Shown: positions 1,821-57,737 of the stretch, one piece after another
How the letters are laid out: each line of letters begins with the position of its first letter
How positions within the stretch are numbered: the stretch's first letter is position 1
NCBI GenBank assembly: GCA_028287135.1
Contig: JAQBQE010000057.1
Location: 1-64,000, forward strand
Reading direction: 5' to 3'
DNA: 64,000 nt
From: Myxococcales bacterium
GTDB lineage: Bacteria > Myxococcota_A > Polyangia > Haliangiales > Haliangiaceae
The notes under the pieces: model-generated
What the model was told of the DNA's origin: nothing
The model's database searches: none
The model's input: the letters and a program-made list of their open reading frames with translations, nothing else
Program-made: the position numbers and the translations under genes

Positions 1821-2678
1821 TTAGCGATTGTGTGAGTGCCTCCGGTCCGCGTTGTAGAAGCCGTCGATGTACGCAGCGACGTCATGCTCGACGTCGTGCG
1901 CATCACGCCACTGGGCGTTGTCCTCGAGTTCGAACTTGAGCGACGAGAAGAAGCTCTCGGCGACGGCGTTGTCCCAGCAGTTGCCCTTACGGCTCATGCT
2001 GCGCCGCACGCCATGGTTCTCAAGAACGGCGCGGTAGTCAGCGCACGCGTAGTGCACGCCGCGGTCACTGTGATGCAGCAGTCCCGCAGGCGCAGGGCGA
2101 AGCGCGAGCGCACGCTGAAGGGCGGTGACGGCGACGGTCGCATCGAGGTTGTCGGAGACAGCCCAGCCGACAACGCGACGAGCAAACAGGTCCAGGATCA
2201 CCGCGAGGTAGGCGAACCCGGTCTGCGTCGGCAGGTACGTCAGGTCGGAGACCCATACCTGGTTCGGGGCGGAGACCTCGAACTGCCGCGCGACGACGTT
2301 CGGCGCGACTGGTTCGCAGTGCTTCGACAGAGTCGTGTGACGAAATCGTCGACGAGAACGTGCTCGAAGGCCGTCTTCTCGCATCAGGCGAGCAACGCGC
2401 TTGCGGCCTACGCGGTGCCCTTGGGCTCGCAGCTCGGCGTGAACGCGCGGGCTGCCGTACCGCTGCTTGCTCGCCTGGAACGCTGCACGCACGTGCGGTT
2501 GGAGCGCGTCGTCCTGCTGCGCTCGTTTCGAGGTGGGGCACTTGAGCCAGGCGTAGTAGCCCGATGGCGCTACTCCAAGCACCCGGCACATGAAGGCAAC
2601 CGTGTACGCGCCCACGTGGGCAGCAATCGCCGCGTACTTCACGACTGGTTCCTCGCGAAGTACGCCGCCGTTTTTTTT
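1821..2678 (-). CDS. IS3-family transposase OrfB (DDE), made by frameshift
   Basis: This frame encodes the catalytic half of the transposase. The HTH_21-like segment (RYGSPRVHAEL) is followed by an rve integrase core with the DDE triad visible as WVSDLTYL, HSDRGVHY and WDNAVAESFFSSLK. The C-terminus ends normally (DRRHSHNR). No good independent start is obvious. The frame is entered from orfA by a -1 slip on the A8 run (2671-2678 on the complement), giving an OrfAB fusion of usual IS3 size. All three catalytic residues are intact, so the element may be active. Confidence 0.92.
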   Translation of the reverse strand, partial: KKNGGVLREEPVVKYAAIAAHVGAYTVAFMCRVLGVAPSGYYAWLKCPTSKRAQQDDALQPHVRAAFQASKQRYGSPRVHAELRAQGHRVGRKRVARLMREDGLRARSRRRFRHTTLSKHCEPVAPNVVARQFEVSAPNQVWVSDLTYLPTQTGFAYLAVILDLFARRVVGWAVSDNLDATVAVTALQRALALRPAPAGLLHHSDRGVHYACADYRAVLENHGVRRSMSRKGNCWDNAVAESFFSSLKFELEDNAQWRDAHDVEHDVAAYIDGFYNADRRHSHNR

Positions 2679-2965
2679 AGAAAGTCGCGCTCCTGCTCGA
2701 CGGTGCGCAGCTCGCGCCGCAACCTCGTCAACTCGGCCCGCTCCTCGGTAGTGAGCGGCCCCTGCGCGTCGGGGCGCTCGTCGACTTCTGCTTGCTTGAC
2801 CCACGCGCGCAGGGCCGTCTCCGTCAGGTCGAGCTCGCGCGCCACCTGCGAAATGGTCTTCCCAGGCGTCCGCGCGATGCGAACCGCCTCAGCCTTGAAC
2901 TCCGGCGTGAACGACCTGCGCTTGCGGGCCGTCTTGGACAACTTCTTCATGAACACCTCCATCAT
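2639..2965 (-). CDS. IS3-family transposase OrfA (HTH_Tnp_1)
   Basis: A 108-residue protein. The N-terminal helix-turn-helix has the family signature RRSFTPEFKAEAVRIA, followed by a segment including ISQVARELDLTETALRAWV. A leucine-zipper-like helix (TTEERAELTRLRRELRTVEQE) ends in DFLKK at the slippery A run. It binds the terminal repeats, and its last codons overlap the start of the OrfB frame. Two ATGs at the beginning (2965 and a few codons in) are both usable. Confidence 0.92.
   Translation of the reverse strand: MMEVFMKKLSKTARKRRSFTPEFKAEAVRIARTPGKTISQVARELDLTETALRAWVKQAEVDERPDAQGPLTTEERAELTRLRRELRTVEQERDFLKKTAAYFARNQS
2671..2678 (-). promoter_or_regulatory. Programmed -1 frameshift site (A8)
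   Basis: Eight consecutive A residues on the minus strand contain an A_AAA_AAA heptamer in the orfA frame (CTA AAA AAA ACG). A slip of -1 joins orfA to orfB, as is usual in IS3 elements. The downstream stimulatory structure was not assessed. Confidence 0.8.
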
Positions 2966-4508
2966 GACGAGAAAGGGATGGGAGGTGTCCGCGGAATCGG
3001 GTCAGGCCCACGAGCACGCGCTCGAGGCATCGCTTTGCGTCGAGAGCTTCGCTGACTTCGTTACGCGGTTCTGGCCGACGATTGACGCGCACACGTACAA
3101 ACCGACCACGGCCAGCGAAGCGATCATCGCGACGCTTCAAGCCGTCGCGGAAGGTCGAATTCGACGGCTCGCGATCGAGGTTCCACCTGGAACCGGCAAA
3201 AGCACGTTGCTCGCGCTCTATGGTGCGTGGCGGCTCGCACGTAACGCTTCACATCGGGCCATCTACGCGAGCCACGCGTACACGATCGCGGCGAACGGGC
3301 TCTCGCTTCGAGCTCGCCGCATCGTCGAGAGCGAGGGCTTTCACGCGATGTTCCCCGCCATCGAGCTCCGCGACGACGAGAACACGGCGAGCGTGTGGGC
3401 GACGACGAGCAACGGGAAGTATGTGGCCGTCGGTGTAGGCGGTGCGCTCACCGGCCATCGCGCAAACGAAACCGTGGTGGATGATCCACTGAACTCGATC
3501 GATGCGCACTCGAAGGCAACGCGCGACACGTGCCACGCGTGGTTCGGCGAGAGCTTCTCTACCCGCGTTGATGGTGATGGTCCGATCACCGTCGTGGGCC
3601 AGCGTCTCGGTACCGATGATCTGATCGGCCGACTCAAAGCGAGTGGTGCCGCGTGGACATGCCTCACGCTACCCGCGGAGTTCGACGGTCGCCGGCGATG
3701 CACGGTGCTCGCTCTCGATGGCTCGGTGGTGTGGACGGATCCACGCACCTATGACGGTGAGCTCCTCGCACCGGCGATCCTGTCGCGGGGGAAGCTCGAT
3801 GAACTCAAGCTCGGGATCGGTTCGGCCGCGTTCCAGAGCCAATACAATCAGTATCCGAGCTCCGACGAGAACTCGATGGCACCGGCGCGGTGGTGGCGCT
3901 TCTACCGGCCGCAACACGCATCGGACGGTGTGCGCCGTCCCCTGGGGTGTAACGAGGATCCGGCGGCCGAGCTCCCCGCCACATTCGATCGCGTTGTCAT
4001 CGCCGCGGATCTCACGTTCGGCTCGGTGAAGGGTGACTTCGCCGTGGTCCAGGTGTGGGGAGCGAAGGGTGGCGGCCGATATCTCCTTCGCCAATGGCGA
4101 CAACGCGCCGGCTTCGAAGATCAGGTGGCCGCGATCAAGCGCTTCGCCGCGGAGTTCCCCGGCGCGAAGATCGCCGTGGAGAAAGCCGCCAACGGTGCGG
4201 CCGTGATCGAGACGCTATCGAAGAGCCTTCCCGGTGTGGTTCCCCAGATCCCGATCGGTTCGAAGGCGCAACGCCTCGCATCGGTGGTGCCTACGCTCGA
4301 GAGCGGCGCGTGTTTGCTACCGGAGAGCGCGAACTTCATCGCCGAGCTCGTGGAAGAGTTCCAGACGTTCCCCGGCCGCCACGATGATCAAGTCGATTGC
4401 GCGGTGTGGGCTCTCCTCGCGTTGCAAGGATCGTCGTATTCGCTCCCCGAGGTTGATGCCGACGACGAAGGTCTAGTTGCCTACGGCATGCGGCTCATGG
4501 GTTTCTGA
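2964..4508 (+). CDS. Phage terminase large subunit, 5' end replaced by IS
   Basis: A 514-residue frame reading from an ATG inside the IS right end. Native sequence begins only after 3004. The ATPase domain has Walker A VPPGTGKSTLL near residues 73-83 and an acidic Walker B-like VVDDPLNS near 171. The RNase H-like nuclease domain has IAADLTFG (acidic residue about 349) and the terminal HDDQVDCAVWALLAL (about 473-487), as in TerL proteins that package phage DNA. The family normally starts only a few residues before the first native residues here, so the IS landed at or next to the start codon. The replacement ATG has no Shine-Dalgarno sequence, so expression is doubtful. No small terminase, portal or capsid gene is next to it. 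Confidence 0.85.
   Translation: MTRKGWEVSAESGQAHEHALEASLCVESFADFVTRFWPTIDAHTYKPTTASEAIIATLQAVAEGRIRRLAIEVPPGTGKSTLLALYGAWRLARNASHRAIYASHAYTIAANGLSLRARRIVESEGFHAMFPAIELRDDENTASVWATTSNGKYVAVGVGGALTGHRANETVVDDPLNSIDAHSKATRDTCHAWFGESFSTRVDGDGPITVVGQRLGTDDLIGRLKASGAAWTCLTLPAEFDGRRRCTVLALDGSVVWTDPRTYDGELLAPAILSRGKLDELKLGIGSAAFQSQYNQYPSSDENSMAPARWWRFYRPQHASDGVRRPLGCNEDPAAELPATFDRVVIAADLTFGSVKGDFAVVQVWGAKGGGRYLLRQWRQRAGFEDQVAAIKRFAAEFPGAKIAVEKAANGAAVIETLSKSLPGVVPQIPIGSKAQRLASVVPTLESGACLLPESANFIAELVEEFQTFPGRHDDQVDCAVWALLALQGSSYSLPEVDADDEGLVAYGMRLMGF
2984..3004 (-). repeat. IS3 right inverted repeat
   Basis: The complement of this stretch starts TGACCCGATTCCG and closes GGACACC, pairing with the left end at 1742. 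It lies between the orfA start and the terminase coding sequence. Confidence 0.88.
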
Positions 4509-8080: not shown

Positions 8081-9193
8081 CTATCCCTCCGTAGGAGGGT
8101 CGGCCGCAAGCTCGGTGATGAAGACCGCCTCGATCCAGTTGCGTTCGCGCTGACCGACGAGAAGAACTGCGTGACCCGCGTCGAAAGCATAGTCCACATC
8201 ATCGGCCAACGTCTCGTCGCAATAGCAACGCGACTCACCCGCGGTTACGTGCGGTGCGGTGCGAAGTGTGAATGTGAGCTTGTCGCGATCGAATTCGCGC
8301 ACGTAGCCCTCAAGCTGGACCGCCCTTGGCTTGCCGCGAGTCTTGAGTGCATGGATCACGTTCTTCGTGGCCTTGCGATTCAGGCTTATCTTGCGGCGAG
8401 CGAGCTTCCCGTCGATCTCGACGTTTTGCACAGCCCCGGTTCCCGGTGGGACGAGATGTCGAAGTGCCGCAAGAATTGCGGTCCACTCGTCGTCATCGTC
8501 AGCCGGCGGGCGTGCATTCGGCGTCGTTGCCCAGGCGAGACCCTTTTGGAGCAGCCCCGCAGCGTCGTTCATCAACTTCTTCTCATCGTCGAGAAGATCC
8601 AACTGCGTGGGCGAACCGAAGTCCACTTCAAGACTTCCGTACGCCATGCGTCGAGTCGGCAAATCGTATAGACGTCGAAGATTGTTCGTCGGCCGCCCTT
8701 CAGGATCACTCTTCGTGAGGAAATCGAGAATCGGCTTTAGTGCTCCTCGGACCGCCTCTGTCGCTCGTCCGATGACGCTCGCTGCTACGTAGTTCTCTTC
8801 AATGTCGCCCGTGAAGCGAACCGAGAGCAATGGAGCAAACTCCGGTTGAAGATAGACTCCCGACTGCGGCAGGCAGTCATCAGGAAGGTCGTCCAACTTG
8901 ATCGATCGAATCGTGGAGCCGAAGGAGAGCCACGCCCATGGTTGCTTGAGTGCTTCGCGGATCGTGACTTCGCCCTTGAAGAGCTTCATGACGATCGATT
9001 CTTCGGTGGGGACGACAAGACGCACATCGCCCTCATCGTCCTCGTCAACCCAGTACACCAACGCGAGTTGAAGCGTAGGGAGTCGCGATGTGAACAGCAT
9101 CGGGCGTTCGAGCTCATCGAGCACATCCACCGGACGCAGAGTCCCCAGCGATCCAAATGGGATCTCGGTGCCGAGGTTTCTGAGTTCGGTCAT
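8081..9193 (-). CDS. DUF6575-like protein, module copy A
   Basis: A 370-residue protein. The first 130 residues resemble DUF6575 proteins: LGTLRPVDVLDELERPMLF, a strand-rich LALVYWVDEDDEG, then VRLVVPTEESIV and DLPDDCLPQSGVYL. The middle and C-terminal parts (FTGDIEENYVAASVIGRAT, RRLYDLPTRRMAYGSLEVD, REFDRDKLTFTLR) are strongly shared with the second copy at 17640-18767. The start at 9193 is fixed by the ATGA overlap with the upstream gene, which the second copy shares. No membrane segment or classical catalytic motif is visible. The family has no established function; its place at the edge of two mobile elements suggests defence or superinfection control (inference). Confidence 0.75.
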   Translation of the reverse strand: MTELRNLGTEIPFGSLGTLRPVDVLDELERPMLFTSRLPTLQLALVYWVDEDDEGDVRLVVPTEESIVMKLFKGEVTIREALKQPWAWLSFGSTIRSIKLDDLPDDCLPQSGVYLQPEFAPLLSVRFTGDIEENYVAASVIGRATEAVRGALKPILDFLTKSDPEGRPTNNLRRLYDLPTRRMAYGSLEVDFGSPTQLDLLDDEKKLMNDAAGLLQKGLAWATTPNARPPADDDDEWTAILAALRHLVPPGTGAVQNVEIDGKLARRKISLNRKATKNVIHALKTRGKPRAVQLEGYVREFDRDKLTFTLRTAPHVTAGESRCYCDETLADDVDYAFDAGHAVLLVGQRERNWIEAVFITELAADPPTEG

Positions 9194-9564
9194 ACGGCGG
9201 CCACTACTTCGAACAGGGAATGCCGCTCTACACCGTCGGACGGCCACCAAGTGTGGTGGGGCGGTGCGAACGTCTGCTTGAGCTTGCCATGCGGGGGTGT
9301 CAGCTGTGCTCGGGCAATGAGCTTGCCCAAGCGTTGATACTGGCGAGCTTTGTACCGTGCGTGCTCCTCATCCAACCAAACAGAGATGCCGCATCGGCAA
9401 CAGGGATCTCCGTCCTTGGCCAGACCGCGCTCGGCCTGCGACTTGAAGTCTTGGGCGGCGCACGGATTTTCCTTCACGATGTAGAAGACGGCGGCATCCA
9501 CATCCGCGGCATCCGCCGGCGGGCAACCATGGGGCAACACCGCAACGATTGGAGCCTTTGTCAT
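9190..9564 (-). CDS. Small Cys/Trp-motif protein, module copy A
   Basis: A 124-residue protein whose key features are conserved with the copy at 18764: LPHxCPP near the start, a PC-x4-DF segment, DPCCRCGISVW (a CxxCG knuckle), and the C-terminal HGKLKQT, HHTWWP and VERHSLFEV motifs. The Cys residues suggest a small metal or structural site. Its stop overlaps the start of the DUF6575-like gene by 4 bp, so the two are translationally coupled. The start at 9564 is taken from alignment with the other copy; a longer frame to 9678 is open but unlikely. The protein family is not recognised. Confidence 0.7.
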   Translation of the reverse strand: MTKAPIVAVLPHGCPPADAADVDAAVFYIVKENPCAAQDFKSQAERGLAKDGDPCCRCGISVWLDEEHARYKARQYQRLGKLIARAQLTPPHGKLKQTFAPPHHTWWPSDGVERHSLFEVVAAV

Positions 9565-9716
9565 CCGATCCCTCTCCACTCGACGTTCCCAGTAATTCTT
9601 CAACTCACCCACTTCACCCCGCCGCCCATGAGCGCACAAGTTACTAACGATCAGCCGCGCCGTACAATGGGCGTGCAATGCAGCCGACCGACAACCACCC
9701 GTCGCCTAACTGTTCG

Positions 9717-9774
9717 TAAGTACGTGGAGGTTTGGGGGATCGAACCCCAGACCCTCGGCTTGCAAAGCCGATGC
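9717..9774. repeat. Attachment repeat (tRNA-Ala 3' fragment), att copy 1
   Basis: These 58 bp are identical to 19273-19330. They contain the 3' 50 nt of tRNA-Ala(UGC) (9725-9774, minus strand) through the anticodon arm, and stop matching inside the D arm. It is a displaced tRNA tail, not a functional tRNA: the D arm and 5' acceptor strand are missing. It marks the junction between elements A and B. Confidence 0.93.
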
Positions 9775-9888
9775 GGCGTGTGTTCACGAGAGTTAGCAAG
9801 CGTCACCGCCGAACACCACCCGAGGTCATTCTACGACGAGGATTACTCAGATTTGCGGCAGCGAGCGTCACGCTGCGTCACGGCCGGC

Positions 9889-9945
9889 GTTGACTAGCGC
9901 GTTGACTAATCCTGTTGATTAGACCCTGGGATCCGTGTTGACTAG
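9889..9945. repeat. GTTGACTA repeats upstream of integrase (putative arm sites)
   Basis: Copies of GTTGACTAG/A lie at 9889, 9901 and 9937, with a variant GTTGATTAG at 9914. All are in the same orientation and 12-23 bp apart, between the att core and the integrase start. The same 8-mer recurs at 11403, 11416, 19236 and 19247, i.e. after the integrase and at the other end of the element. This is the expected pattern for integrase arm or excisionase sites. Confidence 0.65.
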
Positions 9946-9951
9946 AGGTCC

Positions 9952-11394
9952 ATGAAGCTCCACCTCACCGACGACACGCTCCGCGGCCTCAAGCTCCCCG
10001 ACGGTGCGCCTCAGCTCGTGCGGTTCGACACCAAGCTCGCCGGGTTCGGCGTGGTCGTGGGGCGCACGCGGACCACGTTCGTGGTCAATCGCCGGGTCGG
10101 GCCCAAGCTCCACCGCGAGGCGATCGGGCACTGGGGCAAGAAGGAGGACGGCGGGATCAACGCGCTCGACGCGCGCAAGCTCGCGCTCGTGATGCTCGGC
10201 AAGCTCGAGGGCAAGGAGTCGACGCCGAACAAGGCCAAGCGCGCGCGGTCCACCGGCCCTACCCTCGCCGAGGCGTGCGAGCTCTACGTCGAGAAGCTCC
10301 GCGCGGGTGGCGCCCGACCGTCGAGCGTGGCGACCGTGGCGCGCGAGATCGGTCGGGACGACAAGCGCAAGGACGGCGAGCGCGAGCGGAGCTACCTCGC
10401 GGTCTGGCTCGATCGACCGCTCGCCTCGATCACGGGCAAGGAGTGCCGGGCCCGCCATGAACAGATGACGGCCGACAACGGACCGCACGTCGCGAACCGG
10501 GTCATGCGCGAGCTCCGGGCGATCTGGAACCACGTCGCGAAGGAGGCCAGCGCCGGGACCATCGACGGGCTCTCGGAAGGGACCGTGTTCCCGGCGAACC
10601 CGACGATCGCGGTCAACTGGAACAAGGAGAACGACTCGTCGAGCTACGTGGACCGACGTCGGGAACCGATCGCGTGGGCCAAGCTCCCCGCGTGGCATGC
10701 CGCGGTCCTCGCACTCGAGACCGGCGTCCGCCGCGACTACAGCCTCGTCGTGCTCCTGACCGGGCTCCGCCGCAACGATGCCGCCTCGCTCCGGTGGGAA
10801 CACATCAACACGACGAAGGAGGCCGTCGCGTCGCGCGTGTGGCACGCCAGCAAACGCAAGTGGGACGAGGTCGAGCTCCCCGCTCGCTCGATGCTCCGGC
10901 CGTCGCCGAAGGGTGGTCGAGCTCGGGCGTTCGTGGTCCCGCTCTCGTCTGCGATCGCCAAGGTCCTCGAACGTCGCCGCACCGAGAACGTCGAGCTTGG
11001 CCAGGACGACGGCGGTTGGGTGTTCCCGTCGCGGGCCCTCAAGAGCGACGCGGACCGCAAGGAGCCCTGCTACTTGTGCCGCGACCTCGGCATGCCGCCG
11101 CACGAGGCTGGAGCGATCGTGCACATCGCCGAGCCCAAAGAGGACTCGAAGGTGCTCGTCGCTCCGCACCGCCTCCGCGACACGTACACGACCGCGCTCG
11201 CCCAGCTCGATCCGCCCTTGAGCCCGTACGTGGTCGACGTGCTCACGAACCACCGCTCCCCGCGCGGATCGGTCACGGCCGGCTACATCGGCGCGCTCGA
11301 CCTCCACGACGCCCAGGAGCGCGCCAGTGCGTTCCTCGTCGAGCGGTTCAAGTCGTCGCCGACCAGCGCGCGCGGCAAGCTCAAGGCCGTGTGA
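9952..11394 (+). CDS. Tyrosine recombinase / phage integrase
   Basis: A 480-residue integrase. The N-terminal DUF4102-like arm-binding region (LKLPDGAPQLVRFDTKLAGFG) and a SAM-like core-binding domain (about 105-215) precede the catalytic domain. Catalytic residues are visible: Arg in LLTGLRRNDAASLRW (about 271), His and Arg in APHRLRDTYTT (about 405 and 408), the second His in NHRSPRGSV (about 433) and the nucleophile Tyr in AGYIG (about 445). It lies 177 bp inside the left att repeat and reads into the element. It is expected to recombine the 58-bp tRNA-Ala core. Confidence 0.95.
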   Translation: MKLHLTDDTLRGLKLPDGAPQLVRFDTKLAGFGVVVGRTRTTFVVNRRVGPKLHREAIGHWGKKEDGGINALDARKLALVMLGKLEGKESTPNKAKRARSTGPTLAEACELYVEKLRAGGARPSSVATVAREIGRDDKRKDGERERSYLAVWLDRPLASITGKECRARHEQMTADNGPHVANRVMRELRAIWNHVAKEASAGTIDGLSEGTVFPANPTIAVNWNKENDSSSYVDRRREPIAWAKLPAWHAAVLALETGVRRDYSLVVLLTGLRRNDAASLRWEHINTTKEAVASRVWHASKRKWDEVELPARSMLRPSPKGGRARAFVVPLSSAIAKVLERRRTENVELGQDDGGWVFPSRALKSDADRKEPCYLCRDLGMPPHEAGAIVHIAEPKEDSKVLVAPHRLRDTYTTALAQLDPPLSPYVVDVLTNHRSPRGSVTAGYIGALDLHDAQERASAFLVERFKSSPTSARGKLKAV

Positions 11395-11402
11395 GCGTCG
11401 AA

Positions 11403-11424
11403 GTTGACTAGGTACGTTGACTAG
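11403..11424. repeat. GTTGACTAG repeat pair downstream of integrase
   Basis: Two direct copies, 13 bp apart, begin 9 bp after the integrase stop. They match the copies before the integrase and near 19236-19255. They could be arm sites or a regulatory site affecting integrase transcription. Confidence 0.6.
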
Positions 11425-11484
11425 ACCCGCGTGCGGGCTCGTTCTCCGACGAGGCTCGAGCCCCGCCCCATCGGCTTCAATGGC

Positions 11485-11862
11485 CTAGGGTTTGGACCCG
11501 GCGGGCAACGCGAGCGACGGCGTCACGTGCTGATCGAGGAACGCGGATCGTTCCGAGGTCGTCATCTGATCCCAGTGCGGCGGCAACGAGCTCGCTCCGG
11601 CGAGCTGAGCGCGGAGGTCGAGCGACTGGACCGGTTTCCCCTCAGTGCGATCGAGGATCATCTCGCATGCGAGGAGTCGCGCACGAAGCGGGTGCACCGA
11701 CGAGGTCGCGACCGAGATCAAGAACCGCGCGATCTCGTCGGGGTCGACCATGCGCCTCAGAGCATTTGTGATCGCGTTTCTGGCGGGCCCGACCCTCGCG
11801 AGAGGCGCGTGTCCCACCACAAATCGACCTGCTCGATCTCGATCGTCTCCAGAATCAGCCAT
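11485..11862 (-). CDS. DUF5681-like element protein
   Basis: A 125-residue protein. GRFVVGHAPLARVGPARNAI resembles the N-terminal motif of DUF5681-type phage proteins (FxxGxxxxGxxxN), followed by a helical segment (VDPDEIARFLISVAT, ACEMILDRTEGKPVQ). Such proteins often accompany terminase-type genes, but no terminase is next to it here. It faces the integrase tail to tail. Start ATG 11862 has only a weak ribosome site. Assignment is tentative. Confidence 0.55.
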   Translation of the reverse strand: MADSGDDRDRAGRFVVGHAPLARVGPARNAITNALRRMVDPDEIARFLISVATSSVHPLRARLLACEMILDRTEGKPVQSLDLRAQLAGASSLPPHWDQMTTSERSAFLDQHVTPSLALPAGSKP

Positions 11863-12007
11863 GATCCGATCTCTAGCTTCGCGAGATCATTTGTCGAGCG
11901 CGAGACACGTGCAGAGTCCGATCCGTTATTCACAATAAATCATCATGCGCTCGGCTAAATACTCCTAGACGCGCGCGACCGCTGCTTGACGCTCGCTATC
12001 GATGGGC

Positions 12008-12197
12008 GTTCCCGACGACGTTCCCACGTTCCCGCGCGGGAACGTTCTGGGAACGGATTTGGGAACGTCCAATAGCTCAGGCGCCCTGTGTACTTAGACA
12101 ACATTCCAATACCCACGTTCCGCGAGTTCCGCACAAGGACTCTGTCCGTGCGGACACGCGCTCGGGAACCGTAAAGGCGGGAACGTCTCGGGAACGT
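12008..12197. repeat. GGGAACGT repeat cluster with 20-bp palindrome (putative origin)
   Basis: Eight or more copies of GGGAAC(G)(T), in both orientations, fall in two groups (12008-12067 and 12164-12197). At the centre of the first is a perfect 20-bp palindrome, ACGTTCCCGCGCGGGAACGT, at 12026-12045. The rest of 11863-12209 has no gene. Iterons next to a RepA-like helicase operon are typical of a replication origin; an operator array is the alternative. Confidence 0.6.
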
Positions 12198-12209
12198 CCG
12201 AAACGAATA

Positions 12210-12241
12210 AACCCGGCCGGGCGTGTCCACCGGGCCGGGTT
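12210..12241 (-). terminator. Rho-independent terminator of helicase operon
   Basis: A perfect inverted repeat (AACCCGGCC with GGCCGGGTT, 14-nt loop) is followed on the minus strand by TTTATTCGTTTC. It lies 19 bp after the stop of the 56-residue gene, so it closes the minus-strand operon. Confidence 0.72.
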
Positions 12242-12260
12242 GGTCTCGTGCGAGGTCGCG

Positions 12261-12431
12261 TTACGCGTGCACGAGCTGGTCGCGGGTTCCTCGCTCCGCG
12301 TCTCGAGCGATGAGAGCCGCGAGCTGACCCTCGATCCCCAGCGCGGCCCACGCGTCGATCTCCGCGTCCATCGCGGCAGCCTCGGAGTCGGTCAGGTACA
12401 TCGTCATAGGAGGAAGTTGGACTCGGCGCAT
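12261..12431 (-). CDS. Small acidic protein (56 aa), end of helicase operon
   Basis: A 56-residue reading frame starts at ATG 12431, five bases after a strong ribosome site (AAGGAG), and ends at TAA 12261. The product is helical and acidic (MYLTDSEAAAMDAEIDAWAA, then a helix ending RDQLVHA). It follows the helicase by 64 bp and precedes the terminator. No family is recognised; it may be an accessory replication or copy-control protein. Confidence 0.65.
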   Translation of the reverse strand: MRRVQLPPMTMYLTDSEAAAMDAEIDAWAALGIEGQLAALIARDAERGTRDQLVHA

Positions 12432-12495
12432 GCGTCTCCTTGTCGTGGTGTTGAGCGCGAACGCGGACCGCGCGCTTCGTATTCCCGGATCATGG

Positions 12496-13911
12496 CTAGC
12501 ACTCGGCGGCCAGTCGCCAACGACCGTCGTCCCCTTGTGCGATCTTGCCCTCGTCCTCGAGCGTGCGGCGCATCGCGATCACGCTGGCCTTGCGGGTGCC
12601 GAGCTCCTTCGCGATCAGGGTCGCGAGCGAGTCGCTGCCCATCGGAGTGGTCGCGAGCGTCGCCAGCACGCGAGCGCGTACTGGGTCTGCAGCCGGGGCG
12701 TGCTTAGTCGCCGTCTCCACGAGCGTGGGCACGATCGCGTCGGCCCCGTCCACGAATCGGAGCCGCATGTCCTCGCCTCCACCCGATCGCGACTTGCCGC
12801 GACTGATCTCGATCACGGCCTCGTTCCGGTCCGAGCCGCGCTCCAGGGTGAGCACGTGATCGGCGTGTTGCCGGATCGCGGTCGAGCCGCGCACGTCACC
12901 CGATGCGTTGGCGTGGTGCAAGAGCACGACGGCGAGCGGTCGGGTCCCGAGCTTGCCCTGCGCCAGGTGCGCGAGCGGTCGCATGGCATCGCCGAGCACG
13001 CTCGCATCGTTCTCGCTTCCCGGCCCGCGGACCTCGGAGAGGTTGTCGATCATGATCGCGGAGTAGCCGAGTCGATCGATGTGCTGCACGAGCCGCGACA
13101 TGGACGCGGGCTCGGTCACGTCGAGCGCACCTGGGTAGAAGTCGACCTTACCAGCGAGCTCCGTCAGGTTCGTCCCCATGCCCCCGGCGAGACGCTGTAG
13201 CCGACGAGCAATCACGGCCGGGCTGCCGTCCAGAAACACGCACAGAACCCGGCCTCGCCTCGCGACGCGACCGCAGAACGGACGGCCGGTCCCGATGCTG
13301 ATCGCCCAGCCGATCGTGACGAACGTTTTTCCTGATCCCGCGGCACCCGCGAGCAAGGTCAGCGATCCGTCCGGGACGAGGCCCTCGATCGCCCAGGTCT
13401 GATCGGGTGCATTTCCAAGGGCGAGGATGGAGACGCTGGCCTCCATGCGCGCGAGCTCGTCCTGGGCGGCTCGAGTCAGGTCCGCGGCTCGTGCTCGCGC
13501 CTCGCTCGCCTCGTGCTCCAGAATCGCGCGCCGGATTCCGTCCTCGATCGCCTGCGGCGCACACTCGGCCAGGCACGCCACCTGGAGCGTGGTCGCGGTC
13601 TCGCTGGCGTACACGAGCGTGGACGCGTCGCGGTCGTGGCATGCCGGGCACAGCGTCGTGAAGCGATCGGTGCCGACGATTGGGGACACGTCATGACCCA
13701 TCGCGCCCACGAGGCGAAATCCGAGCCGTGAGTAGAGGGTGACCTCGCGAGCGTGGCCGGCGTCGCTGTCATCGTCCCCACGCTCGACGTAGGGGGCCGG
13801 CAACCGGAAGACGCGGACCTCGGCGAGTGCAATCTTCTCCAGCGTCCGCACAGGGGCGAGCCTCGCGGCTTGGGCGAGGGCAACTCGATCTAGCGCGTCG
13901 ATCAGGGACAC
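12496..13911 (-). CDS. RepA-like AAA_25 replicative helicase with N-terminal zinc motif
   Basis: A 471-residue product from GTG 13911, which overlaps the previous stop. Residues 85-115 hold paired cysteines (CPACHD, CLAEC) like a primase-type zinc ribbon. A RecA-fold ATPase follows with Walker A GAAGSGKT near 190 and Walker B AIMIDNLSEV near 285, then LAVVLLHHANASGDVRGSTA, a typical RepA/AAA_25 motif containing the sensor His. The last 70 residues look like a winged helix (LATLIAKELGTRKASVIAMR). It probably unwinds the element origin after excision. Confidence 0.85.
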   Translation of the reverse strand: MSLIDALDRVALAQAARLAPVRTLEKIALAEVRVFRLPAPYVERGDDDSDAGHAREVTLYSRLGFRLVGAMGHDVSPIVGTDRFTTLCPACHDRDASTLVYASETATTLQVACLAECAPQAIEDGIRRAILEHEASEARARAADLTRAAQDELARMEASVSILALGNAPDQTWAIEGLVPDGSLTLLAGAAGSGKTFVTIGWAISIGTGRPFCGRVARRGRVLCVFLDGSPAVIARRLQRLAGGMGTNLTELAGKVDFYPGALDVTEPASMSRLVQHIDRLGYSAIMIDNLSEVRGPGSENDASVLGDAMRPLAHLAQGKLGTRPLAVVLLHHANASGDVRGSTAIRQHADHVLTLERGSDRNEAVIEISRGKSRSGGGEDMRLRFVDGADAIVPTLVETATKHAPAADPVRARVLATLATTPMGSDSLATLIAKELGTRKASVIAMRRTLEDEGKIAQGDDGRWRLAAEC

Positions 13912-14084
13912 AGCGGCTTCGCCTTTGCGATCAGCGCGTCGAGCTCGGCGCGAATGTCCGCTGTCGTGTCGGGATCTGCGGCGACCTCGCGTGCCAGGCG
14001 ACTCAGGATGAAGTTCGCGAGGTTCGTGTACCCGAGGTCGCGCGCGCGGCGCGCGGCGTCGAGCCGCTCGCGGCGATCGTTCAC
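13902..14084 (-). CDS. Small helical protein in helicase operon
   Basis: A 60-residue product. GTG 14084 overlaps the stop of the upstream HTH gene (GTGA) and its own stop overlaps the helicase start, so the three genes are coupled. The protein is helical (RARDLGYTNLANFILSRLAR) with an acidic segment. Not recognised. Confidence 0.65.
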   Translation of the reverse strand: MNDRRERLDAARRARDLGYTNLANFILSRLAREVAADPDTTADIRAELDALIAKAKPLCP

Positions 14085-14269
14085 GCCGCACCGCCCACGG
14101 TCTGAGCGGCGAGCCACGCGTCCACCGCGACGCGGGCATAGCGCACCTGCCGACCGATGCGGATCCAAGCGGGGCCTTGCGCGAGCCGGCGCCAATTGCG
14201 GAGCGTGGAGAGCGAGAGGCCGAGCTCGGCGGCCAGGGACTCAGTGTCGACGTATGCATTAGCGGTCAT
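14081..14269 (-). CDS. AlpA/HTH_17-type regulator
   Basis: A 62-residue protein. SLAAELGLSLSTLRNWRRLA plus the wing GPAWIRIGRQVRYARVAVDAWL is the standard helix_turn_helix_17/AlpA excisionase-like domain. It is the first gene of the minus operon (HTH, 60-aa protein, helicase, 56-aa protein) and faces the plus operon. It is a likely regulator of the divergent promoter region and/or excision. Start ATG 14269 is preferred over the longer frame to 14305. Confidence 0.85.
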   Translation of the reverse strand: MTANAYVDTESLAAELGLSLSTLRNWRRLAQGPAWIRIGRQVRYARVAVDAWLAAQTVGGAA

Positions 14270-14313
14270 TGTGCGTTGTCCTTGGGTTTGGCGAGCCCTT
14301 GACACTCCTTAGC

Positions 14314-14328
14314 ACTCGTCGCACGAGT
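14314..14328. promoter_or_regulatory. Inverted repeat in divergent promoter region (putative operator)
   Basis: ACTCGT-CGC-ACGAGT is a perfect 6-bp inverted repeat with a 3-bp spacer. It sits in the 220-bp space between the divergent HTH genes at 14269 and 14490. It is a plausible binding site for one of those HTH proteins. Confidence 0.45.
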
Positions 14329-14489
14329 AGATAGTTTCATCCGGCCGCAACACGCGGAATGAAGAAAATACGACGAGAACAGCCGTGAATCCGGGCACCT
14401 GGCGAGCGTGACGCACTGACACGCCTTCTTTCATACGTTGCATATTGCGGACTCCTTCTCTTCCAGCCGCGGTCAACTACGATTGACTT

Positions 14490-14684
14490 GTGACACCCCT
14501 ACTTCCGCGCTGGCGAATCGGTCGCGCCGCACACGCGCTCGGCCTCTCCGACCAGCGCGTCCGCGGTCTCGTCGATGAAGGCGAGCTCGCGTGTGAGCGG
14601 CTCGAGGACGGCACGCGGATTTTCGATCCCGCGGACGTGTTTGCGCTCGCCACCCGCCGCGCGGAGAGCAAGGACAGCCGATGA
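14490..14684 (+). CDS. Small MerR-type HTH protein, element B operon
   Basis: A 64-residue product from GTG 14490. RIGRAAHALGLSDQRVRGLV and the wing (ERLEDGTRIFDPADVFALA) form a MerR-like winged helix. It is equivalent in position and size to the element A gene at 5309, and opens a ten-gene operon in which most neighbours overlap by 4 bp. Confidence 0.72.
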   Translation: MTPLLPRWRIGRAAHALGLSDQRVRGLVDEGELACERLEDGTRIFDPADVFALATRRAESKDSR

Positions 14685-15115
14685 ACGAGCCCGATGACTA
14701 CGGTCTCGATCTCGAGGAGCTCGCGAAGACGCCGCGCTCGACGCGGTTTGTCCCGAAGAAGCTCGGACGTCCACCCGGATCGAAGACGTCCTCGACGCCC
14801 CCGCCGTCGAGGCTGAGTCCTCGAGCGCGCGCTGCGCTTGCCCGGACGGCTGCTGTCCGAGCCGCTCAAGACCAGGCCGCTGAGGTCGAGCGACTCGAGA
14901 ACGCCGCCAGCGGAGGTCGTGCGCGTGCCGCCGCAACGACGCCCGAGCAGCGTTCGCGTGTCGCGAGTGCCGCGAGTGCGGTACGTTGGTCCAAGATCCC
15001 AGCGGGCGAGCGGACCTCGCCCAACCCCGATTGGTCAAAGCTCTCGCGCGACGTCGCGATCAAGAGCAAGGGCGGTCGCGCTCGTGCGGCCAAGCTCGCC
15101 TCCGAGGCCCCGTGA
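14681..15115 (+). CDS. Basic protein with AT-hook-like motif
   Basis: A 144-residue, Ala/Arg-rich protein. KLGRPPGSKT near residue 30 matches an AT-hook core (GRP), and the C-terminal half has two GGRARAA repeats (SGGRARAAAT, KGGRARAAKL) typical of basic DNA-binding tails. ATG overlaps the previous stop. It is likely a DNA-associated protein of the element; no enzymatic domain is seen. Confidence 0.6.
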   Translation: MNEPDDYGLDLEELAKTPRSTRFVPKKLGRPPGSKTSSTPPPSRLSPRARAALARTAAVRAAQDQAAEVERLENAASGGRARAAATTPEQRSRVASAASAVRWSKIPAGERTSPNPDWSKLSRDVAIKSKGGRARAAKLASEAP

Positions 15116-15312
15116 GCCGGACCGATCGACCGTCGATGGGCGAGCTCCTACTCGACGGCGACGGTTGGGCGATCGCCGCGATCGCCTCGGTCGCGCATGG
15201 GCTCACTGAGCGCCAGCTCCGACGACGCGTGCGCAGCGGCGCGATCCGTTCGCGCATGACCGCGAACCAGGTCGAGGTCTTCGCTTTGCCCGCCAACGAG
15301 GAAGCGCTGTGA
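15112..15312 (+). CDS. Small HTH-like protein
   Basis: A 66-residue product from GTG 15112 overlapping the previous stop (GTGA). WAIAAIASVAHGLTERQLRR and a following RVRSGAIRSRM segment look like an HTH with a short wing. It is part of the coupled plus-strand operon. Family not certain. Confidence 0.55.
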   Translation: MSRTDRPSMGELLLDGDGWAIAAIASVAHGLTERQLRRRVRSGAIRSRMTANQVEVFALPANEEAL

Positions 15313-15425
15313 CGCTCCACGTTCAACGCGACGCGCGCTACTGGCTCGATGTGTATCGGGAGGGCCTCGTCGCGTGGTGGAGCACGGGGCATCGCATGGC
15401 CGCTCGCCCCCAGGAAAGAAACTGA
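15309..15425 (+). CDS. Very small protein (38 aa), element B operon
   Basis: A 38-residue frame. GTG 15309 overlaps the previous stop (GTGA) and ends 2 bp before the next ATG, so it is embedded in the coupled operon. It has a Trp/Tyr-rich centre (YWLDVYREGLVAWWSTGHRM). The spacing is what supports it; nothing is known of its role. Confidence 0.45.
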   Translation: MTLHVQRDARYWLDVYREGLVAWWSTGHRMAARPQERN

Positions 15426-15427
15426 TC

Positions 15428-15901
15428 ATGAAAATCCAAACCGACTCGGAAGCGACCAGCGAACGTTCAGGCTGTGCGTGCCGCGAACAGCACACCGACG
15501 AGGTCGAGGACCCGCACGCGGTCGACCTCGAGCGCGACTCCGCGGTCCTCCTGCTGGGCGAGCCGCACCGCGCGATCCTCGAGCGGTTCGGCCGCGCCGA
15601 GGACGTCCGCGCGTACGCCGCGTCGATGCGGTCACGGATCGAGGAGCACGACGCCTACCTCGAAGGACTCCGCGAACAGGATCTCGCGCGCGCCTCTGAA
15701 CGTGACGCTCTCTACGTCGCCGAGGTCGCGACCGCACAACGCGCGCTTGACAAGGCGACAGGCATGCAGATGCCCCGGCGCCCCCTCGCAACACTCCCCA
15801 ACAGTGCGGAGCGCCCGCTCACCGACGACGAACGCGCACGACCACGCGGCATGCGCCCGCTCCGTCCATCGCTCCTACGCCGCAACCGGCACCGCTTCTA
15901 A
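15428..15901 (+). CDS. Hypothetical protein with GCAC and ERDALYVAE motifs
   Basis: A 157-residue protein. SGCACREQH lies near the N-terminus, followed by a long helical centre (HRAILERFGRAEDVRAYAAS) and ASERDALYVAEVATAQ near residue 95. The motif pair is shared with the 144-residue gene of element A (5985). The tail is basic and proline-rich. It is a conserved element gene of unknown function. Confidence 0.62.
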   Translation: MKIQTDSEATSERSGCACREQHTDEVEDPHAVDLERDSAVLLLGEPHRAILERFGRAEDVRAYAASMRSRIEEHDAYLEGLREQDLARASERDALYVAEVATAQRALDKATGMQMPRRPLATLPNSAERPLTDDERARPRGMRPLRPSLLRRNRHRF

Positions 15902-15912
15902 GAAGGATCACC

Positions 15913-16401
15913 ATGACTCAGGAACTCAAGACGCTCCTCGACAAGATCGCCGAGCTCGAGGCCCGCGCCTCCGCCAGCGAAACCCGGCTCGCACGCATCG
16001 AGCGCTGCCCCCAGGTCATGCACCTCGTGACCACTCACGAGGCCACCGAGCGAGCTCGCGAGCTCGCGATCGCGGTGGACGAGCACAAGGCGGCAGCGTT
16101 CGCGACCGCGAGTGCCGCGCTTCGCCGCTCGTGCGAATCCGAGAATGGACGCTGGCGCGCGCTACGGGTCGCGCCGGACAACACGGGCTGTGTGGCAGTC
16201 GAGCTCGACCTCGGCTCCCTCGGCAAGGTCCGTGCGGCGCCCGGTGCGGCCGTCCGTCACCTCCGCAACATCGATCTCGAGGTGTACCTCAAACGAGACC
16301 AGCAACTCGCTGCCGCGGTTGCGCAAGGTCACGTGCTAATCGAGGACGTCGAGATCGAGCGCGCGATCCGTTTGGAGCGCGCGGATCGGGCTGGTCGATG
16401 A
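15913..16401 (+). CDS. Coiled-coil protein, element B operon
   Basis: A 162-residue protein that opens with a coiled coil (LKTLLDKIAELEARASASET, residues 5-35), followed by more helix. A strand-rich segment begins near residue 75 (WRALRVAPDNTGCVAVELDL). A good ribosome site (AAGGA) precedes the ATG. It is positionally equivalent to the coiled-coil gene of element A at 6416. Confidence 0.62.
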   Translation: MTQELKTLLDKIAELEARASASETRLARIERCPQVMHLVTTHEATERARELAIAVDEHKAAAFATASAALRRSCESENGRWRALRVAPDNTGCVAVELDLGSLGKVRAAPGAAVRHLRNIDLEVYLKRDQQLAAAVAQGHVLIEDVEIERAIRLERADRAGR

Positions 16402-16619
16402 TCAACTCAGTCCCACTCTTCGGCGACCGGCCTGAGATCTCAGTCGCCGAGCTGATGATCGAAACTCTTCTCAACCACTTTGCGACTCTTCAAGAGCGCG
16501 ATCCGAGCCGGTTGAGCAAGGACTACTTCGCGACGCGTTGGGCGCTCGAAGAGGCAGCCAAAGCGCACCCGCGCGATTTCGTCGAGGCCGCGCTCCGCCT
16601 CCGTGGGACCAGCCGATGA
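16398..16619 (+). CDS. Small helical protein
   Basis: A 73-residue protein whose ATG overlaps the previous stop (ATGA). It consists of two or three helices (SVAELMIETLLNHFATLQ, RWALEEAAKAHPRDFVEAAL). No family is recognised. Confidence 0.55.
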   Translation: MINSVPLFGDRPEISVAELMIETLLNHFATLQERDPSRLSKDYFATRWALEEAAKAHPRDFVEAALRLRGTSR

Positions 16620-16831
16620 TCAACGAGATCGCCGAGCACCTCAGTCGAATCGTTGGACGCGTCCTCTACAACGAACACAGCGACTCCGTGCACGGACCGA
16701 ACAGAAGTCGTGCGTCTGAGACGGCGGGCCTCACGTGGGCGCTTGGGGAACTCTCGGAGCACTTCCCTGAGGAAATGGCCGCAGCCGAGCGGATCGCCGA
16801 AGCGCGCGAACAACAGAGAAACCGCCGATGA
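16616..16831 (+). CDS. Small helical protein
   Basis: A 71-residue protein, ATGA-coupled to both neighbours. It begins MINEIAEHLSRIVGRVLY and ends in a charged helix (EEMAAAERIAEAREQQ). It resembles its upstream neighbour in size and opening (MIN). Unknown function. Confidence 0.55.
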   Translation: MINEIAEHLSRIVGRVLYNEHSDSVHGPNRSRASETAGLTWALGELSEHFPEEMAAAERIAEAREQQRNRR

Positions 16832-17166
16832 AATTCGCGGACCGCGAACGCTCGGTGTTGCGCGAGCACGCGATGTCGATCTTCGCAGATCCGAAATCGA
16901 GCTCGGAGGATCGCGCCGCCGCGCGCGCGCGTCTGACCGACGACCAACGCGAGCTCGACGTCTCGGTCCTGCACTCGGCGGAGGTCGTGCTCCTTGCGCT
17001 GATCTGCGCCAAGGCCCTCGGCAACGAGTGCCCGATGGGCTGGAACCACCCGAGCGTCGATCGACACGACGAACTACGTGGCGTGTTGAGCCAGCTCGAG
17101 TCGTACGCGAACCAGATCCGCGCAGAGCTCGCGACGCTCAGCGCCGCGGACGGAGTGCGCGGTTGA
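16828..17166 (+). CDS. Hypothetical helical protein
   Basis: A 112-residue protein, ATGA-coupled to the previous gene. It is helical with a hydrophobic centre (SAEVVLLALICAKALG) and a PMGWNHP turn. It is too short and polar for a membrane protein. Not recognised. Confidence 0.55.
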   Translation: MKFADRERSVLREHAMSIFADPKSSSEDRAAARARLTDDQRELDVSVLHSAEVVLLALICAKALGNECPMGWNHPSVDRHDELRGVLSQLESYANQIRAELATLSAADGVRG

Positions 17167-17175
17167 CAACCTTTC

Positions 17176-17237
17176 TCGTCGGGCGCGGAGGGTTCGAGAA
17201 TCCTCTCGTGCCAGGTCCGCATAACCGCGCCCGACGA
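17176..17237 (+). other. 13-bp perfect stem with T-arm-like loop
   Basis: TCGTCGGGCGCGG (17176-17188) pairs perfectly with CCGCGCCCGACGA (17225-17237) across a 36-nt loop. The loop contains GAGGGTTCGAGAATCCTC, which resembles a tRNA T arm but with an 8-nt loop. There is no tRNA fold around it and no T-run, so it is neither a tRNA nor a standard terminator. It may be a structured leader of the next gene. Confidence 0.4.
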
Positions 17238-17253
17238 AACTTTTCTCGCTGAA

Positions 17254-17547
17254 GTGCTGATGCCGAACGAACCGACCAACCTCACCCTGCCGCCGCTCGA
17301 TCTCACGGCCGCCCCCTTCGTCGCTCCGCCGGATAACGACACGATCGTGCGCGTCGAGATTCTCGAGCGACAGCTGGCGGAGCTCGTAGCCCGCGTACAC
17401 GGTGCATGCAGCGTTCTCGACATGCTCAACAAGGCTGCGCTCGAACTCGCCGCGAACATCGATTCACGGAAAGTTGCCGAGCCTACGGGCGGTGGCGTCA
17501 CGGGCGACTCGTTCCGCGACGTCCAGGTCAACGTCACGCGCCCTTGA
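17254..17547 (+). CDS. Hypothetical protein, last gene of element B operon
   Basis: A 97-residue product from GTG 17254 (an ATG two codons later is possible). A proline-rich, extended N-terminus is followed by a coiled-coil-like helix (VEILERQLAELVARVH) and a second helix. It ends 92 bp before the convergent module gene. Unknown function. Confidence 0.55.
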   Translation: MLMPNEPTNLTLPPLDLTAAPFVAPPDNDTIVRVEILERQLAELVARVHGACSVLDMLNKAALELAANIDSRKVAEPTGGGVTGDSFRDVQVNVTRP

Positions 17548-17639
17548 GCTCAAGCTCGTGGTCGATCGGTCGCGCGCCAGCACTCCGTGATCGGTCCGCG
17601 TCCATAGGGCGCCTATCGAGCGCGCCGTCCCGGGGTTGC

Positions 17640-18767
17640 TTAGCCTTCGACTTGGGAGTCCGGTCCGCTATGTTCGGCTAGTTCCTCGACGACAACCACT
17701 TGGATCCAACCGCCAGAACGAAAGCCGATCAGGTTCACACGACGTTCGCTATTGAACGCGTCGTCAACGTCCCCGACCAAGCTCTCGTCGCAGTAGCATT
17801 TCTCGCCGTGCATGACACCAGGCTCGGGGCGGAGGGTGAACGTGAGCTTGTCTCGGTCGAACTCGCGGACGTAGCCCTCGAGGTTCACGGCCTTCGGCTT
17901 GCCACGGAACTTCAAGGCACGGATTACGTTCCTGGTCGCCTGGCGATTGAGGCTGACCTTGGATCCCGTCAACTGCCCGCTGAGTTCGACGTTGCTAACC
18001 TGGCCCGTGCCCGGGGGAACGAGATAACGGAGCGCAGTGAGGATCGCATCCCATTCAGGATCGTCAGGTGGCGTTGAGTCCTTGGACGTTTCTGCCGCCC
18101 ATGAGAGCCCACGGCGCAACATGCCCGCCGCTTGCTCCATGTACCGGCGGTCGTCGCCAAGGAGGTCGAGTTGGGCGGGTGCGCCGAAATCCACCTCGAA
18201 ACTCCCGTACGCCATTCTCCGCGCTGGGAGGTCATAGAGTCGCCGCAAGCTGTTCGTTGGGCGCCCCTCAACGTCGCGATCGGTGACGTAATCCAAGAGT
18301 GGCTTGAGCGCGCGACGAACTGTATCGGTAGCACGACCAATAATGCTCGCCGTAACGTTGTTCTCGTCGATGTCTCCGGTGAAACGCACCGAGATAATCG
18401 GTTCAAACTCTCGAGAAAGGTAGATCCCAGCTCGCGGCAAGCAGTCGTGCGGAAGATCCTCGACCCGGATTGAACGAGCGTCCCCGTCTCCGAAGGCGAG
18501 CCACGCCCAGGGTTGCCGAAGGGCCTCACGGATCGTGAGCTCGCCTCTGAGCAAATGCTCAATGATGGTGCTCTGAGTCGGAACGACGAGTCGGACGTCA
18601 TCGCCGAGAGCGTCCTCCTCGATCCAGTACACAAGCGCGAGCTGTGTGGTGGGGAAGGACGCGGTGAACAAGGTCGGGCGATCGAGCTCGTCGAGCACGT
18701 GCTTAGGCCGCAACGCGCCGAGATAATTCCTCGGAATCGGACTGCCTATGTTGCGTAATTCGCTCAT
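17640..18767 (-). CDS. DUF6575-like protein, module copy B
   Basis: A 375-residue homologue of the protein at 8081-9193, alignable end to end: MSELRNIGSPIPRNYLGALR at the start, FTGDIDENNVTASIIGRAT in the middle, and YVREFDRDKLTFTLRPEPGV followed by a CYCDESL segment near the end. The start at 18767 follows from the ATGA overlap with the upstream gene, as in copy A. Divergence is spread along the protein, so the two copies came in with different elements rather than by recent duplication. Function is unknown; DUF6575 resemblance is restricted to the first third. Confidence 0.75.
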   Translation of the reverse strand: MSELRNIGSPIPRNYLGALRPKHVLDELDRPTLFTASFPTTQLALVYWIEEDALGDDVRLVVPTQSTIIEHLLRGELTIREALRQPWAWLAFGDGDARSIRVEDLPHDCLPRAGIYLSREFEPIISVRFTGDIDENNVTASIIGRATDTVRRALKPLLDYVTDRDVEGRPTNSLRRLYDLPARRMAYGSFEVDFGAPAQLDLLGDDRRYMEQAAGMLRRGLSWAAETSKDSTPPDDPEWDAILTALRYLVPPGTGQVSNVELSGQLTGSKVSLNRQATRNVIRALKFRGKPKAVNLEGYVREFDRDKLTFTLRPEPGVMHGEKCYCDESLVGDVDDAFNSERRVNLIGFRSGGWIQVVVVEELAEHSGPDSQVEG

Positions 18768-19123
18768 ACCGTCGCTATCACTTCGAAAATCGAATGCCGC
18801 TCTACGTCGTCGGCGGGCCACCACGTGTGATGGCTGGGTCTGTACGTCTGTTTCAGCTTGCCATGCTCGGCTTGGAGTCGCCCGCGAGCGATCATGTTGC
18901 CAAGTCGGGGATGTTTACCGGCTTGGTACCGCGCATCGGCCTCGTCCTTCCACACGGAAAGGCCGCAGCGGTTACAGGGATCTGCGTTGCGCTGCGAGTT
19001 GCGCTCCGCGTGCGTTTGGAAATCCGTCGCCTCGCACGGCGACACTTTGACGACGTAGTAGACCTCGAGCTCGCAATCGAGCGCGTCCGTCGGCGGACAG
19101 TCGTGCGGCAGCACCAGTGGCAT
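18764..19123 (-). CDS. Small Cys/Trp-motif protein, module copy B
   Basis: A 119-residue homologue of the protein at 9190-9564. Conserved blocks are VLPHDCPP, DPCNRCGLSVWKDE, HGKLKQTYRPSHHTWWP and VERHSIFEVIATV. Start ATG 19123 has an AGGGG ribosome site just upstream; a GTG nine codons earlier is less likely. The stop overlaps the DUF6575-like start by 4 bp. It is the gene nearest the tRNA junction in the element. Confidence 0.72.
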   Translation of the reverse strand: MPLVLPHDCPPTDALDCELEVYYVVKVSPCEATDFQTHAERNSQRNADPCNRCGLSVWKDEADARYQAGKHPRLGNMIARGRLQAEHGKLKQTYRPSHHTWWPADDVERHSIFEVIATV

Positions 19124-19235
19124 CGGAACCCCTAACGTGCCAGCTCGCACGCCAGCAGGATCACATCGTAGTGACCCCCTCTGATCAAGTTTCTCGCCTG
19201 CCGCGAAAGGCGTCAGGGATCACGCAAAAGCACGC

Positions 19236-19255
19236 GTTGACTAAACGTTGACTAG
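19236..19255. repeat. GTTGACTAA/G pair near right att (putative arm sites)
   Basis: Two direct copies begin at 19236 and 19247, 18 bp from the 58-bp att repeat. They match the copies flanking the integrase at the opposite end, as expected for integrase/excisionase arm sites on both arms. Confidence 0.62.
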
Positions 19256-19272
19256 AGCCGCTTCGAACCGTC

Positions 19273-19330
19273 TAAGTACGTGGAGGTTTGGGGGATCGAA
19301 CCCCAGACCCTCGGCTTGCAAAGCCGATGC
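19273..19330. repeat. Attachment repeat in tRNA-Ala, att copy 2
   Basis: These 58 bp, identical to 9717-9774, overlap the 3' 50 nt of the intact tRNA-Ala gene plus 8 bp downstream. Recombination between the two copies would excise about 9.56 kb and leave the tRNA intact. Confidence 0.93.
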
Positions 19331-19352
19331 TCTCCCACTGAGCTAAACCCCC
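19281..19352 (-). tRNA. tRNA-Ala (anticodon UGC)
   Basis: A complete 72-nt cloverleaf without encoded CCA. The acceptor stem is GGGGGTT with AACCTCC (one G-U pair), the D stem GCTC/GAGC, the anticodon stem TCGGC/GCCGA with loop TTTGCAA (anticodon TGC), and the T loop TTCGATC. It is the integration target: its 3' half forms the 58-bp att repeat. Confidence 0.96.
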
Positions 19353-57637: not shown

Positions 57638-57737
57638 GGAAGCGCGTACTGGACTGGTGCCGGTCTCGGTCTTCAAAACCGATGGAGCTCTGCGCGAGCA
57701 GCGGCTCGGTGGGTTCGATTCCCATGCGCTTCCGCCA
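57638..57737 (+). tRNA. selC: tRNA-Sec (selenocysteine, anticodon UCA)
   Basis: A 100-nt gene including CCA. It has an 8-bp acceptor stem GGAAGCGC with GCGCTTCC (57638-57645, 57726-57733), discriminator G, an anticodon loop CTTCAAA (anticodon TCA), a long variable arm (GAGCTCTGCGCGAGCAGCGG region) and T loop TTCGATT. All are diagnostic of tRNA-Sec. It decodes UGA with SelB; selA, selB and selD are not in the window. It is a classical insertion target, and accessory genes start right after it. Confidence 0.97.

What the first reader, a model, noticed from the sequence alone, without database searches (positions are those of the whole stretch)
8081..19123. Same two-gene module at the tRNA-side end of two tandem elements
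The pair at 8081-9564 and the pair at 17640-19123 have the same order, strand, 4-bp ATGA overlap and position just inside the att junction. The large proteins align end to end and begin like DUF6575. The small proteins share LPHxCPP, DPCxxCG, HGKLKQT, HHTWWP and VERHS blocks. The copies are diverged along their length, so each element brought its own. Keeping a coupled pair at the attachment end is typical of accessory immunity or superinfection-exclusion cargo. I know of no described function for this pair.
Basis: partly seen in the sequence, partly recalled or inferred. Interest (0 to 1): 0.78.

Follow-up and report, generated by a model that had tools for sequence, protein, structure and literature searches.

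The report
Twin toxin-antitoxin phage-defence pairs (PD-T4-10-like)
Two neighbouring mobile DNA elements each carry their own copy of a two-gene unit that is a distant member of PD-T4-10, a known toxin-antitoxin anti-phage system of E. coli prophages, and the antitoxin is predicted to have an ADP-ribosyltransferase-like fold, which I have not seen reported for this family.

Summary
In detail: two A-B gene pairs (9564-8081 and 19123-17640, minus strand) have the same order, the same ATGA overlap, 59%/64% protein identity, and lie 153/150 bp inside a 58-bp exact tRNA-Ala repeat. It is not a system of unknown function. The large protein is DUF6575. Small and large proteins match PADLOC's PD-T4-10_A and PD-T4-10_B, the two-gene toxin (B)/antitoxin (A) abortive-infection system described in E. 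coli in 2022. In 284 genomes of the same phylum, A occurs in 9, and B lies beside it in all 9. Related pairs sit in enterobacterial prophages, plasmids and defence loci, mostly with the same ATGA overlap. The two elements share no other detectable coding sequence, so the pair is separate cargo under purifying selection. Two points go beyond the known: AlphaFold2 of the small protein (pLDDT 88) gives an ADP-ribosyltransferase-like fold (50 of the 50 best VIA-align entries), unusual for an antitoxin; and the C-terminal part of B differs between lineages. The element between the repeats may be a phage satellite. Function here is inferred by homology; nothing was tested.

The parts
9190..9564 (-). 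small gene, pair 1: PD-T4-10_A-like putative antitoxin (124 aa)
   Evidence: PADLOC PD-T4-10_A E 4.2e-5, residues 12-123 on profile 23-146/148; 59% identical to pair 2 copy
8081..9193 (-). large gene, pair 1: DUF6575 protein, PD-T4-10_B-like putative toxin (370 aa)
   Evidence: Pfam PF20215 32.7 bits against cut-off 26.6; PADLOC PD-T4-10_B E 6.3e-5
18764..19123 (-). small gene, pair 2: PD-T4-10_A-like putative antitoxin (119 aa), predicted ART-like fold
   Evidence: PADLOC PD-T4-10_A E 1.1e-8; AF2 pLDDT 88.4, pTM 0.81; fold search
17640..18767 (-). large gene, pair 2: DUF6575-like putative toxin (375 aa)
   Evidence: 64% identical to the pair 1 copy; PF20215 21.3 bits, below the cut-off
9717..9774 (-). 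att repeat, junction between left and right element (58 bp, identical to the tRNA-side copy)
19273..19330 (-). att repeat in the 3' part of tRNA-Ala(TGC), 19280-19352
9952..11394 (+). tyrosine integrase of the right element
   Evidence: PF00589 31.6 bits; phrog_1 E 5.2e-22
12496..14259 (-). AAA_25 primase/helicase-like protein of the right element
   Evidence: PF13481 E 1.4e-25; phrog_906 E 6.2e-20
14081..14305 (-). HTH_17 small DNA-binding protein (AlpA/excisionase type)
   Evidence: PF12728 E 1e-9

Best explanation
Each pair is a distant member of the PD-T4-10 toxin-antitoxin defence family carried as cargo by its mobile element. The large DUF6575 protein (B) is the toxin, and the small protein (A), whose gene comes first and overlaps B's, holds it in check. 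During infection by some phage, A would be lost, outcompeted or altered, and B would stop the infected cell so the phage cannot spread. Shown here: gene pair, order, overlap, homology of both parts, constant co-occurrence, purifying selection, mobile setting. Inferred: toxicity of B, neutralisation by A, abortive infection, trigger. A is predicted to have an ADP-ribosyltransferase-like fold. Because both window copies have Tyr where most relatives have Arg on the first strand, I think A works here by binding B rather than by NAD chemistry.
For: PADLOC PD-T4-10_A hits both small proteins and PD-T4-10_B hits the pair 1 large protein, in the right order, at levels like those of enterobacterial prophage relatives (A: 1e-5 to 5e-10). 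hhalign of window A against enterobacterial A: 97.5%, E 6.6e-12 over 112 columns; window B against enterobacterial B: DUF6575 part, 93%, E 3.5e-7; window B against Rhodococcus/Oscillatoria/same-phylum B: columns 11-315, E 1.3e-11. In 284 genomes A in 9, B in 11, and in all 9 A lies upstream of B on the same strand. ATGA overlap in 21 of 23 viral-contig loci (several near-identical to each other) and in most other relatives. Vassallo et al. 2022: two overlapping ORFs, B toxic, A neutralises and cannot be deleted, B needed for T4 resistance. Relatives lie beside HsdM, TIR plus Dam, HNH plus DndB-like, SEFIR genes and in prophages.
Against: PADLOC E-values are weak (1e-8 to 6e-5), and P0002 gave no PD-T4-10_B hit. 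Only the N-terminal ~120 residues of B align to the PADLOC model, so the effector part may differ from the tested system. The founding PD-T4-10 protein sequences were not in hand for direct comparison. No phage, host or toxicity data exist for these copies.
Confidence: 0.8

Rival explanations
1. A selfish addiction module: a toxin-antitoxin pair that stabilises the integrated element at its end, with no real role against phage.
For: Overlapping two-gene TA layout at the end of mobile elements and on plasmids, with neighbouring elements each keeping its own diverged pair.
Against: The characterised relative blocks T-even phages; several relatives lie next to restriction, TIR/SEFIR or Dnd-like genes.
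Confidence: 0.25
2. The small protein is an active ADP-ribosyltransferase-type enzyme that neutralises B by modifying it or its target (a type VII-like enzymatic antitoxin), not a binding antitoxin.
For: ART-like fold: the 50 best VIA-align entries are ART-fold proteins, best Tpt1/KptA Z 8.2. Across 22 relatives, strand-1 Arg in 18; Ser56, Gly88, His98, Trp102 in 22; Thr93 in 21.
Against: Best Foldseek E only 0.065. No conserved C-terminal Glu of the R-S-E type. Both window copies have Tyr at the Arg position.
Confidence: 0.15
3. Superinfection exclusion or another phage-specific lysogenic function unrelated to TA.
For: In enterobacterial prophages the pair sits at a cargo position between antiterminator Q and the lysis genes, or between lysis genes and terminase.
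Against: No surface or membrane exclusion protein was found among the family matches; the tested family member is toxic and acts by abortive infection.
Confidence: 0.05

Closest known systems
PD-T4-10 (Vassallo et al. 2022, PMC9519451)
   Same: Two overlapping genes, small A then DUF6575 B, same order; both partners match the PADLOC models; mobile-element setting.
   Different: Very diverged; B matches only in its N-terminal DUF6575 part; function in this host untested.
DUF6575-DUF7226 pairs of enterobacterial prophages (L054, L057, L067, L068, L009)
   Same: A homologous over 112 columns; B shares DUF6575; ATGA overlap.
   Different: B ends in a DUF7226-like part (429-431 aa) instead of the shorter GYVREFDRDKLTF-type end (370-375 aa).
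PADLOC candidates PDC-M32A / PDC-M63B
   Same: Weak similarity to the middle and C-terminal part of the same-type B proteins.
   Different: No DUF6575 part shown; E-values weak for the window copies (0.02-0.06).
ART-fold toxins with separate antitoxins (ParT, RES-Xre)
   Same: Small protein shares the predicted ART-like fold.
   Different: There the ART protein is the toxin; here the ART-like protein would be the antitoxin.

Membership tests
PD-T4-10 | Two overlapping ORFs, small A first, B second | tested here: met
   ATGA overlaps, order A then B in both pairs
PD-T4-10 | A homologous to PD-T4-10_A | tested here: met
   PADLOC PD-T4-10_A E 4.2e-5 and 1.1e-8, nearly full length; hhalign with enterobacterial A E 6.6e-12
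PD-T4-10 | B homologous to PD-T4-10_B with DUF6575 | tested here: met
   PF20215 above cut-off for P0001; P0002 below cut-off but 64% identical to it. N-terminal part only on PADLOC B: E 6.3e-5 for P0001, no hit for P0002
PD-T4-10 | Same C-terminal part of B as the founding system | tested here: inconclusive
   Matches stop near profile position 140 of 353; founding sequence not in hand
PD-T4-10 | B toxic, A neutralises, abortive infection against T-even phages | not testable with these tools
   Needs expression and plaque assays
DUF6575 (PF20215) | Score above the gathering cut-off | tested here: met
   P0001 32.7 against 26.6 bits; P0002 alone 21.3, below it
ART-like fold (small protein) | Overall fold | tested here: inconclusive
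   AF2 pLDDT 88.4; all 50 listed VIA entries ART-fold, Z 8.2 to 4.7; but Foldseek E 0.065 and Z near the tool's background of 7 to 8, so consistent rather than decisive
ART-like fold (small protein) | Catalytic R-S-E or equivalent residues | tested here: inconclusive
   Arg in 18 of 22 (Tyr in both window copies), Ser 22 of 22, no conserved Glu seen; equivalence inferred from strand order, no coordinates
Phage satellite (right element) | Integrase, AlpA-like and primase genes, no virion genes, mobilised by a helper | tested here: inconclusive
   int, HTH_17, AAA_25 found; no structural gene among the proteins scanned, but not every small ORF was scanned; mobilisation not testable

The most novel reading that the evidence does not exclude
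The antitoxins of the PD-T4-10 family are ART-fold proteins repurposed as neutralisers (binding or enzymatic), the family's toxins swap C-terminal effector parts behind a constant DUF6575 part, and satellite-like elements in this phylum carry them.
Probability: 0.45. Interest if true: 0.6.

Novelty: new member of a known kind. Interest (0 to 1): 0.42.

Why it matters
It extends an experimentally proven but mechanistically dark E. coli defence system to a distant, high-GC phylum and to small integrative elements. The predicted ART-like fold of the antitoxin and the variable C-terminus of the toxin give testable structural leads for how this family works.

Tried and rejected
Zinc-finger/MqsA antitoxin reading of the small protein: MqsA hit E 0.15 only, and the CxxC is not conserved in relatives. 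Fold of the large protein: AF2 pLDDT 47 overall; best VIA Z 3.9 (polo-box), not interpretable. PDB sequence searches found no solved relative. Genome-contig scans found nothing; tblastn of the window small protein in phages and of the Rahnella large protein in phages: none. B-only genomes G010 and G151 are partial matches outside the N-terminal part of DUF6575. Outer end of the left element: not found, contig ends. No other paper on PD-T4-10 or DUF6575 in the held library.

Full report
WHAT IS THERE. Two minus-strand gene pairs, 9564-8081 and 19123-17640, each a small gene overlapping the following large gene by ATGA. The proteins are 59% and 64% identical. Both are under purifying selection (pN/pS 0.41 and 0.32). 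A 58-bp exact repeat of the 3' part of tRNA-Ala(TGC) lies at 9717-9774 and 19273-19330, so the pairs start 153 and 150 bp inside the repeats. DNA and six-frame protein comparison of the two elements finds nothing else in common. The pair is therefore independent cargo and not the remains of a duplicated element.

THE ELEMENTS. The right element (9717-19330) has a tyrosine integrase, an HTH_17 protein and an AAA_25 primase/helicase-like protein. No virion gene was recognised among the proteins scanned, which resembles a phage satellite; this is an inference. The left element carries a phage large terminase subunit (3021-4508) and an insertion-sequence transposase. Its outer end is off the contig, and the assembly is 59.5% complete.

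WHAT THE PAIR IS. The large protein is DUF6575. PADLOC's PD-T4-10_A matches both small proteins almost end to end, and PD-T4-10_B matches the pair 1 large protein. PD-T4-10 was found by functional selection in E. coli: two overlapping ORFs, B toxic, A neutralising and not deletable, B required for resistance to T4 (PMC9519451). Profile comparison with enterobacterial prophage homologues confirms the link independently: A over 112 columns, E 6.6e-12; B over the DUF6575 part, E 3.5e-7.

CO-OCCURRENCE. In 284 genomes of the phylum, A occurs in 9 and B in 11, and every A lies upstream of B on the same strand; three of these genomes supplied rows to the profiles, and in G019 both genes match only in pieces. 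The two B-only genomes match only outside the N-terminal part. Small-protein searches in plasmids hit Rahnella, Oscillatoria and Rhodococcus; the first two records annotate DUF6575 next to it and the Rhodococcus DNA reads the same way. A large-protein search added a Pantoea plasmid pair flanked by integrases. E. coli prophages carry the pair between Q and holin or between lysis genes and terminase. Of 23 viral-contig loci, 21 have the ATGA overlap. Same-phylum relatives lie near HsdM, TIR plus Dam, HNH plus DndB-like and SEFIR genes.

MECHANISM. Most likely a toxin-antitoxin abortive-infection module. Inferred by homology: B toxic, A antitoxin. The trigger and the target of B are unknown.

NEW LEADS. 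AF2 of the small protein (pLDDT 88.4, pTM 0.81) was compared with PDB chains: all 50 listed entries are ART-fold (Tpt1/KptA Z 8.2, then RES, ParT, Scabin, Arr and bacterial toxins). Foldseek's best E is 0.065 and a best Z near 8 is not rare by chance, so this is a consistent but not a decisive match. In 22 relatives Ser56, Gly88, His98 and Trp102 are invariant; the strand-1 Arg is in 18 but is Tyr in both window copies. I read A as an ART-fold protein used as a binding antitoxin; enzymatic action is not excluded for the rest of the family. The C-terminal part of B is of at least two types: DUF7226-like in enterobacteria, and a shorter type here and in Oscillatoria, Rhodococcus and same-phylum genomes, weakly like PDC-M32A/PDC-M63B.

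VERDICT. The interpretation as immunity cargo is supported by homology, but the system is already described. The remaining interest is its distant host, the neighbouring-element setting, and the antitoxin fold.

Noticed in passing
9717-19330: Small (9.6 kb) element at tRNA-Ala with integrase, HTH_17 and AAA_25 primase/helicase-like genes and no recognised virion gene: possible phage satellite in this phylum.
   Followed up: partly
1821-4508: Left element carries a large terminase subunit (3021-4508 +) with insertion-sequence transposase genes (1821-2965 -) just upstream.
   Followed up: partly
57638-57737: ARAGORN reports a tRNA-SeC gene (anticodon tca).
   Followed up: no
L077:1512-1926: In this short viral contig the small gene is broken by an early stop while the large gene is open (436 aa); possibly a sequencing error.
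   Followed up: no
L039 (G151), L040 (G010): Proteins matching only the middle/C-terminal part of B without a matched N-terminal DUF6575 part: the C-terminal part may occur with other N-terminal parts.
   Followed up: no
L008:1616-2005: Viral-contig relative whose large gene is only 129 aa, with transposase genes further along the contig; apparently truncated.
   Followed up: no
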